Of a stretch of 64,000 nt of DNA, positions 42,425-43,479 are shown in pieces. Every line of letters starts with the position of its first letter. Within the stretch, counting starts at the first letter, position 1. The position numbers and the translations under genes are program-made. Source of the DNA: a virus; IMG/VR virus record IMGVR_UViG_3300025012_000079, positions 1 to 64,000 of that record; one strand, written 5' to 3'. Below the pieces are notes generated by a model that saw nothing but the letters and a program-made list of their open reading frames with translations, was not told the origin of the DNA and did not search any database.

Positions 42425-42473
42425 GGGATTGTTTTCGTATACAAACGAAATTTTCCTAGGATAATATTTTCAT
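42425..42473 (-). ncRNA. Structured 3' flank of permuted tRNA (possible intron 5' half)
   Basis: On the minus strand this segment holds a hairpin TTTCGT/ACGAAA with a 6-nt loop, framed by AGGAAAA and ACAATCCCG. The layout and the CAATCCCG string recall the P4-P5-Q region of phage group IA introns (compared from memory). It leads directly into the terminator stem. Confidence 0.35.
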
Positions 42474-42633
42474 TTAATATCAGATGTTAAACTAAATACT
42501 TGCCACTCTACCACTGAGTTACCTTGCCTTAATTAATAAGATAAATACATTTAGTTGTTATTTACCTTATCAATGGAGGCAAGAATAGGAATTGAACCTA
42601 TGACTGCAAGTTATATTTTAGATCTGATATAAA
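42473..42633 (-). other. Long-range helix extending the anticodon arm
   Basis: The sequence before the 3' half (TTTATATCAGAT, 42633-42622) pairs with ATCTGATATTAAA (42485-42473) after the 5' half, with one bulge. Between them CTAAAATA can pair with TATTTAG. The result is a long helix with a 3-nt bulge (TAA) next to the anticodon stem and a 6-nt bulge further out, which brings the two tRNA ends together. Confidence 0.55.
42499..42610 (-). tRNA. Circularly permuted tRNA (3' half before 5' half)
   Basis: On the minus strand the 3' half comes first (42610-42574): anticodon-stem strand CTTGC, variable AGTC, T arm ATAGG-TTCAATT-CCTAT, acceptor strand TCTTGCC, U73 and encoded CCA. A 45-nt spacer forming a 15-bp hairpin follows. 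The 5' half then runs 42528-42499: acceptor GGCAAGG, T8, A9, D arm ACTC-AGTGGTA-GAGT, G26 and GCAAG. Acceptor pairs 7/7 (one G-U) and anticodon stem 5/5, and all invariant residues (T8, A14, G18, G19, A21, T54, T55, C56, A58) are present. The anticodon lies at the junction and cannot be read, so identity is open. No splicing protein gene is seen. Confidence 0.85.
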
Positions 42634-42729
42634 CTAATAATTATTTCCTCTATGGAACATACTGAAGGGTCAATAAACTTTTGCCATATATACTCTACTG
42701 ATGACTCTACTAACACTGGCCCTTATAAA
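42634..42729 (-). ncRNA. Structured 5' flank of permuted tRNA (possible intron 3' half)
   Basis: On the minus strand, after the stop codon of the upstream gene, AAGG...CCTT and GCCA...TGGC can pair and enclose AGAGTATATATGGC, somewhat like the P7/J8-7 region of a group I intron. No protein-coding potential. The assignment is tentative. Confidence 0.3.
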
Positions 42730-43479
42730 TTAGTTATTAATAAATTTAAAAATCTCTTCTCCAATATTAATGTTTAGTGTTTCAGTTGTATTAGCCCGCT
42801 GACGGGCTTTTTTAAATGCTCGAATAAGTTTGTCGATCTTTTCAAGCAAAATTGATTTTTCTGCTGGTGAAATCATTCCAGACCAAGAATTGGTTATATA
42901 CTTACCAATATTGTTTACTTTAGATACTTCTTTTACTTGTGCTGGATGCTCTTTTGTTGCTTCATATAAAACAACTGGTTCTACGACAGTCTCAGTTCTT
43001 AGTTTCTCAATTGGCTTTGCTGCCTTATAGATGTTTTTTCCTATTGATGTATCAAGTTCCCAAGAAATTCCAGGAGCTAATGTTGGAATGGCTTCATAAA
43101 CAGTTCGAAGATATTTTAATCTTGTTTCCATTCCAAGTAAGAATGTTGCTGGTAAGTTAGTACCAAGTGTAATTCCATCTACGATCAAATCTGCTTTAGC
43201 AACTTGATTTGTAGCTTCTTTCTGGAGAATAGCATCAAAATAACGTACTTCAGTTTTCTGCATATGAGATAATTTATCTTTTACAGTAGTATCGATTGCT
43301 TTTTCTTCTTCTGGATAATCAATACCGTCTTCGATAAATGCTTCATATCGTCGATGCTGTCCCAGGAAGTGATCTGACTTCTTGGTAAAGGTATTCTTAG
43401 TTTCTTCAATAATCTTTTTATGTGCCCCTTCAAGATCACCTTCAACAGCAAGTAACTCATGCAATAATGACTTTTTCAT
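42730..43479 (-). CDS. Conserved phage protein (DUF7873-like)
   Basis: 249 residues with the features of a widespread phage family: FLGQHRRYEAF near 40, then ADLIVDGITLGTNLPATFLLGME, a GISWELD segment, KEHPAQVKEV, and a C-terminal helix KARQRAN. Its function is unknown. It is often found in early or middle gene blocks and can be abundant. Behind a good GGAGA site. Confidence 0.65.
   Translation of the reverse strand: MKKSLLHELLAVEGDLEGAHKKIIEETKNTFTKKSDHFLGQHRRYEAFIEDGIDYPEEEKAIDTTVKDKLSHMQKTEVRYFDAILQKEATNQVAKADLIVDGITLGTNLPATFLLGMETRLKYLRTVYEAIPTLAPGISWELDTSIGKNIYKAAKPIEKLRTETVVEPVVLYEATKEHPAQVKEVSKVNNIGKYITNSWSGMISPAEKSILLEKIDKLIRAFKKARQRANTTETLNINIGEEIFKFINN

What the first reader, a model, noticed from the sequence alone, without database searches (positions are those of the whole stretch)
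42499..42610. A circularly permuted tRNA gene in a bacteriophage
Two halves of one tRNA occur in swapped order on the minus strand: 3' half with encoded CCA first, then a 45-nt hairpin spacer, then the 5' half. Every cloverleaf stem pairs and every invariant residue is in place, and the anticodon-stem strands GCAAG/CTTGC match perfectly across the permutation. Permuted tRNAs are established in some algae and archaea with a splicing endonuclease. A bacterial phage would need another way to join the halves.
Basis: seen in the sequence. Interest (0 to 1): 0.95.

Follow-up and report, generated by a model that had tools for sequence, protein, structure and literature searches.

The report
Phage Y-RNA-like permuted tRNA mimic
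A phage makes an RNA whose parts fold into a tRNA written in swapped order and lacking an anticodon; the same kind of RNA follows a gene of unknown function (DUF7873) in dozens of unrelated phages, so it is most likely a tRNA-mimicking partner RNA of that protein, like bacterial Y RNA, and not a tRNA that must be spliced together.

Summary
Window 42499-42610 (-) folds as a circularly permuted tRNA: 3' half with CCA, 45-nt hairpin spacer, 5' half. The gene directly upstream is Pfam DUF7873. All 79 evaluable DUF7873 loci that I fetched from metagenomic contigs, and the 11 from named phages and actinobacterial replicons, have such a permuted tRNA downstream. Acceptor sequences differ, and all seven acceptor pairs covary. 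The flanks form a long stem carrying the tRNA fold at its tip. The junction has no anticodon loop (U33 is not conserved), so a splicing route to a decoding tRNA is unsupported. The covariance model built here also recognises bacterial Y RNA (YrlA, Rfam RF02553), whose tRNA-like module has the same permuted order and a CCA-like end, and Y RNA arrays beside Ro60 genes in phages. This RNA differs from YrlA in its partner protein (DUF7873, not Ro60), a YAG-every-6-nt 5' domain, an often present second tRNA-like domain with an anticodon but no CCA, and a conserved 3' hairpin. It is below the YrlA cut-off. Best reading: a new Y-RNA-like tRNA-mimic ribonucleoprotein of phages. Its effector is unproven.

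The parts
42730..43479 (-). DUF7873 protein gene (249 aa), inferred protein partner
   Evidence: Pfam PF25283 E 1e-71; always next to a permuted tRNA; no structural relative with E below 0.001
42661..42724 (-). 5' domain: AAGGG...CCCTT hairpin with YAG repeats
   Evidence: across loci YAG spacing of 6 nt has z = 29
42622..42630 (-). 5' strand of the extended stem (ATATCAGAT), pairs with 42477-42485
   Evidence: in-cis flank pairing across loci P = 8e-22
42574..42610 (-). 3' half of the permuted tRNA (tRNA-1): anticodon-stem strand, T arm, acceptor strand, T73, CCA
42529..42573 (-). Spacer hairpin between CCA and position 1
   Evidence: spacer 2-94 nt in relatives, longer in L240 and L200, and holding an HNH endonuclease ORF in L226
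42499..42528 (-). 5' half of the permuted tRNA: acceptor strand, D arm, anticodon-stem strand
42477..42485 (-). 3' strand of the extended stem (ATCTGATAT)
42433..42450 (-). Small hairpin TTTCGT-TTGTAT-ACGAAA at the place where relatives carry a second tRNA-like domain or an anticodon-stem-loop-like hairpin; its own loop is not a standard 7-nt anticodon loop
42395..42424 (-). 3' hairpin with conserved loop GGA-AGGATA-TCT followed by a T run (terminator-like)

Best explanation
It is a structured noncoding RNA of about 330 nt (roughly 42724-42388, minus strand) encoded just downstream of, and probably co-transcribed with, DUF7873. SHOWN: a permuted, anticodon-less tRNA fold sits at the tip of a long stem formed by its flanks; a YAG-repeat 5' domain precedes it; an optional anticodon-bearing second tRNA-like domain or hairpin and a terminator-like hairpin follow it; DUF7873 is always next to it; the tRNA module has the same order and core as the tRNA-like module of bacterial Y RNA (YrlA). 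INFERRED: it works like a Y RNA. DUF7873 binds the RNA, perhaps through the YAG repeats and stem, as Ro60/Rsr binds the stem of YrlA. The tRNA module is the effector end that attracts a tRNA-binding host factor, such as PNPase (as in the Rsr-Y RNA-PNPase machine) or another tRNA-handling enzyme. RNase P and 3' trimming may remove the spacer and leave a two-piece RNA with a free CCA end. No anticodon is assembled.
For: Permuted tRNA at every evaluable DUF7873 locus (named records), against 0/82 shuffles and 2/79 upstream controls. Covariation: 349 two-sided changed cells against 105 +- 8 in shuffles; acceptor 100% paired with 4-6 pair types per position. In-cis pairing of flanks, -24.3 against -16.8 kcal/mol for mismatched loci. 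In 20 whole records each has a match, and for nearly all the top match is the DUF7873-adjacent one. The model matches above-threshold YrlA loci at 53-59 bits and Y RNA arrays beside TROVE/Ro60 genes in phages. Reverse test: the YrlA model gives several of these RNAs 33-41 bits. YrlA described as long stem plus D, T and acceptor arms, bound by Rsr and PNPase (PMC8394870).
Against: No binding data. DUF7873 has no detectable similarity to Ro60 in Pfam or among the listed PDB fold matches, so the protein analogy rests on position only. None of these RNAs reaches the YrlA gathering score, and the window RNA gets no YrlA match at this place. The 5' domain, second tRNA-like domain and 3' hairpin have no counterpart in the published YrlA descriptions read here. 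The shared tRNA order could be convergent.
Confidence: 0.6

Rival explanations
1. Decoy: the RNA protects phage or host tRNAs by binding host anticodon nucleases or acceptor-modifying toxins. tRNA-1 offers an uncleavable acceptor and elbow; the second domain offers an anticodon arm.
For: tRNA-1 lacks an anticodon while the second domain, where present, has one but lacks CCA. Identities differ even between close relatives, as in an arms race. PMC7790460 proposes that YrlA may competitively inhibit the anticodon nuclease in its operon.
Against: No linkage to a known defence system was shown. DUF7873 has no PADLOC match. The window RNA carries only a small hairpin in place of the second domain.
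Confidence: 0.2
2. Two-piece, tmRNA-like RNA: RNase P and 3' processing excise the spacer; the CCA end is aminoacylated and the nicked RNA acts on the ribosome.
For: NCCA encoded in 64/78, canonical T and D loops, variable spacer often ending TAT. The spacer tolerates a whole HNH gene. Permuted tmRNA genes are known to give two-piece RNAs (PMC10085705).
Against: No conserved tag reading frame was recognised, a full D stem is present, position 3-70 is C-G or G-C in most, ARAGORN calls no tmRNA in the window, and discriminator bases are mixed. CCA-like ends also occur in YrlA.
Confidence: 0.12
3. A permuted tRNA gene as in algae and archaea: the halves are joined at the anticodon and the spacer is cut out.
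For: Cloverleaf pairing is perfect in the window and flanking helices hold the ends together.
Against: No conserved anticodon-loop residues across 78 relatives. No RtcB or RNA_ligase (PF09414) gene in the record. The anticodon stem is paired in only 70% of cells. YrlA shares the order and is not described as spliced.
Confidence: 0.05
4. Relic of a tandem tRNA array whose outer halves were lost, or chance.
For: tRNA arrays are common in phages and can resemble this order.
Against: Conservation with compensatory change across unrelated phages, cis-pairing flanks, and no tRNA called in this window.
Confidence: 0.02

Closest known systems
Bacterial Y RNA YrlA (Rfam RF02553) with Rsr/Ro60
   Same: Permuted order T arm, acceptor hairpin, D arm at the tip of a stem made by the two flanks; no anticodon; CCA-like end; model R1 matches it at 53-59 bits
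   Different: Partner is DUF7873 (not TROVE); YAG-repeat 5' domain, optional second tRNA-like domain and a conserved 3' hairpin; longer variable spacer; below the RF02553 cut-off
Permuted (two-piece) tmRNA
   Same: Acceptor part with CCA precedes the 5' part, with an intervening segment in the gene
   Different: Complete D arm, no Ala-type G3-U70 rule, no tag frame recognised
Circularly permuted tRNA genes of algae and archaea
   Same: 3' half, intervening sequence, 5' half in one gene
   Different: Those mature into decoding tRNAs (PMC10085705); here no anticodon loop is conserved at the junction

Membership tests
YrlA (RF02553) | Score above the Rfam gathering cut-off (69 bits) | tested here: not met
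   Best of these RNAs 41.3 bits; no match at the window RNA
YrlA (RF02553) | tRNA-like module with T, acceptor and D arms in permuted order on a basal stem | tested here: met
YrlA (RF02553) | Ro60/Rsr (TROVE) protein encoded nearby | tested here: not met
   No TROVE match in the window record; in 3 of 20 records at a separate place
YrlA (RF02553) | Binds Rsr and PNPase | not testable with these tools
   needs biochemistry
Permuted tRNA gene (decoding tRNA) | Anticodon loop with U33 formed across the junction | tested here: not met
   T at position 33 in 40/78
Permuted tRNA gene (decoding tRNA) | Spliced circular precursor | not testable with these tools
   needs RNA sequencing
tmRNA | Called as tmRNA, with tag frame | tested here: not met
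   ARAGORN calls none in the window
tRNA (RF00005) | Score above gathering in genomic order | tested here: not met

The most novel reading that the evidence does not exclude
DUF7873 and its RNA form a new ribonucleoprotein in which the two working ends of a tRNA are put on separate tRNA folds of one RNA: an acceptor-CCA fold without anticodon and an anticodon fold without CCA. It would be processed into a chargeable two-piece RNA that acts on translation or on tRNA-targeting defences.
Probability: 0.15. Interest if true: 0.95.

Novelty: new variant of a known kind. Interest (0 to 1): 0.75.

Why it matters
Permuted tRNA folds escape ARAGORN and the Rfam tRNA model, so this cassette has stayed hidden behind hypothetical proteins in phages of Rhizobium, Vibrio, Klebsiella, Gordonia, Arthrobacter, cyanobacteria and many uncultured hosts. 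It gives DUF7873 a likely RNA partner, extends the Y-RNA idea beyond Ro60, and offers named cultured phages in which the function of a tRNA-mimic RNA can be tested.

Tried and rejected
First viral-contig pattern CTTGCCTCCA-N-GGCAAG was too loose (chance hits only); a stricter one found only the near-identical contigs. Natural permuted group I intron: no Rfam group I match. Splicing junction or anticodon: no conserved U33. tmRNA: not called. RNA ligase in cis: absent. Solved-structure sequence search and fold searches for DUF7873: nothing significant. PHROGs, NCBIfam and PADLOC: no match. Papers on DUF7873: none held. Searches of the held library did not surface a phage or bacterial permuted tRNA. 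The primary YrlA papers are not held, so their wording on permutation could not be checked.

Full report
OBSERVATION. On the minus strand, 42610-42499 reads as a tRNA cut in the anticodon stem and re-joined at the acceptor end: anticodon-stem strand, 4-nt variable loop, T arm, acceptor strand, T73, CCA; a 45-nt hairpin; then acceptor strand, TA, D arm, G26 and the other anticodon-stem strand. All stems pair and the T and D loops are canonical. ARAGORN and Rfam miss it. The region folds far better than dinucleotide shuffles (z = -6.4; -6.1 for the whole RNA).

CONTEXT. The gene upstream (42730-43479) is Pfam DUF7873 (PF25283, E 1e-71); the one downstream is a PD-(D/E)XK nuclease. Relatives found through the nuclease show that the place between is a variable cargo spot; only near-identical contigs carry this cargo.

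RELATIVES. Searching with DUF7873 changed the picture. Seven diverged loci at about 50% protein identity all had a permuted tRNA right after the gene. So did Rhizobium, Vibrio, Klebsiella jumbo, Pseudanabaena, Arthrobacter and Gordonia phages, a Streptomyces plasmid and a Nonomuraea replicon. Of 82 further loci, two end too early to judge. My scanner found the element in 73 of the other 80, against 0/82 shuffled and 2/79 upstream controls. Of the remaining seven, L190 ends about 180 nt after the gene; L198, L240, L243 and L248 score 49-62 bits with the covariance model; L200 and L226 have both halves, with 7/7 acceptor pairs by eye, separated by a long spacer, which in L226 holds an HNH endonuclease ORF. 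That makes 79 of 79 evaluable loci. DUF7873 itself is rare in cellular genomes: 1 of 398 in one phylum sample, the centre genome itself.

IS IT REAL STRUCTURE? On an alignment of 51 sequences with the structure written down beforehand, 92.3% of cells pair; 349 cells show two-sided change against 105 +- 8 in shuffles; sliding the partners drops pairing below 50%. Caveat: the scanner required T, D and acceptor pairing to select loci, so the percentage paired is conditioned for those helices. The anticodon stem was only weakly favoured by the score (any register) and still covaries in a fixed register. The flanks beyond the anticodon stem, which the scanner did not use, pair with their own partner better than with those of other loci (-24.3 against -16.8 kcal/mol, P = 8e-22; the loci are not all independent).

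ANATOMY ACROSS LOCI. 5' domain: a hairpin with YAG every 6 nt (z = 29). Then the long stem with the permuted tRNA (tRNA-1) at its tip; NCCA is encoded in 64 of 78. Then, in many loci, a second tRNA-like domain: in normal order (acceptor pairs 1 and 2 mostly broken, no CCA except in one outlying hit, anticodon loop with U33), or permuted, in some loci at the variable loop, or only an anticodon-stem-loop-like hairpin. Last, a GC hairpin with loop consensus AGGNNA and a T run. In the window the second domain is only a small hairpin (42450-42433).

WHAT IT IS NOT. The junction carries no conserved U33 or purine 37, so a decoding tRNA made by splicing is not indicated. The record has no RtcB or RNA_ligase (PF09414) gene; RtcB is in 4 of 18 carriers. 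tmRNA is not called in the window.

WHAT IT RESEMBLES. The covariance model R1 of tRNA-1 also found permuted tRNA modules with CCA in arrays beside TROVE (Ro60) genes in three carrier genomes. It matched above-threshold YrlA loci from bacterial genomes at 53-59 bits, with the same order and a CCA-like end. YrlA is described as a long stem joined to a tRNA-like domain with D, T and acceptor arms; the stem binds Rsr and the tRNA-like end binds PNPase (PMC8394870). The RF02553 model in turn gives several DUF7873 RNAs 33-41 bits, under its cut-off of 69, and does not match the window RNA. So the tRNA module is of the Y RNA type; the whole RNA and its protein are not YrlA and Ro60.

MECHANISM. Best supported: a Y-RNA-like RNP in which DUF7873 holds the RNA and the tRNA mimic recruits a tRNA-binding factor. 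The RNA fold and the gene association are shown; binding, effector and processing are inferred. AlphaFold gives DUF7873 a confident fold (pLDDT 89) with no significant match in PDB or the viral library. The decoy and two-piece rivals remain open.

NOVELTY. No Rfam family covers the RNA. The held literature gave no mention of DUF7873, and searches for bacterial or phage permuted tRNAs surfaced none. A 2023 list of natural RNA permutations does not include one (PMC10085705). The library is open-access only, so this is not proof of absence.

Noticed in passing
window 43791-43617 (-); L004 3398-3551; L009 3650-3783; L010 1340-1507; L019 3749-3862 and 5240-5407: A tRNA-Leu-like frame in normal order (acceptor, D arm GGTAGACGC, T arm, acceptor) whose anticodon region is replaced by a different 45-120 nt sequence in different relatives; not called as tRNA. 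It may be another tRNA-scaffolded RNA of this phage group.
   Followed up: partly
window 43603-43517 (-): Conserved element of about 90 nt (TGCCGGAAACGC...GAATCGGC) that borders the variable cargo spot in the relatives; its fold is not significant on its own (z = -1.2).
   Followed up: partly
L226 3419-4010: An HNH endonuclease ORF sits in the spacer between the two tRNA halves, like a homing element in a spacer.
   Followed up: partly
L253 1350-2320; L252 580-950: Arrays of Y RNA-like units beside a Ro60 (TROVE) gene in phages; several units carry permuted tRNA modules with CCA and others do not.
   Followed up: partly
L230, L234, L246, L184 downstream of tRNA-1: The second tRNA-like domain is permuted at the variable loop, so its anticodon arm stays whole.
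   Followed up: partly
L198, L200, L240 spacers: Spacers of roughly 130-170 nt that are long inverted repeats with structured interiors, possibly small mobile elements.
   Followed up: no
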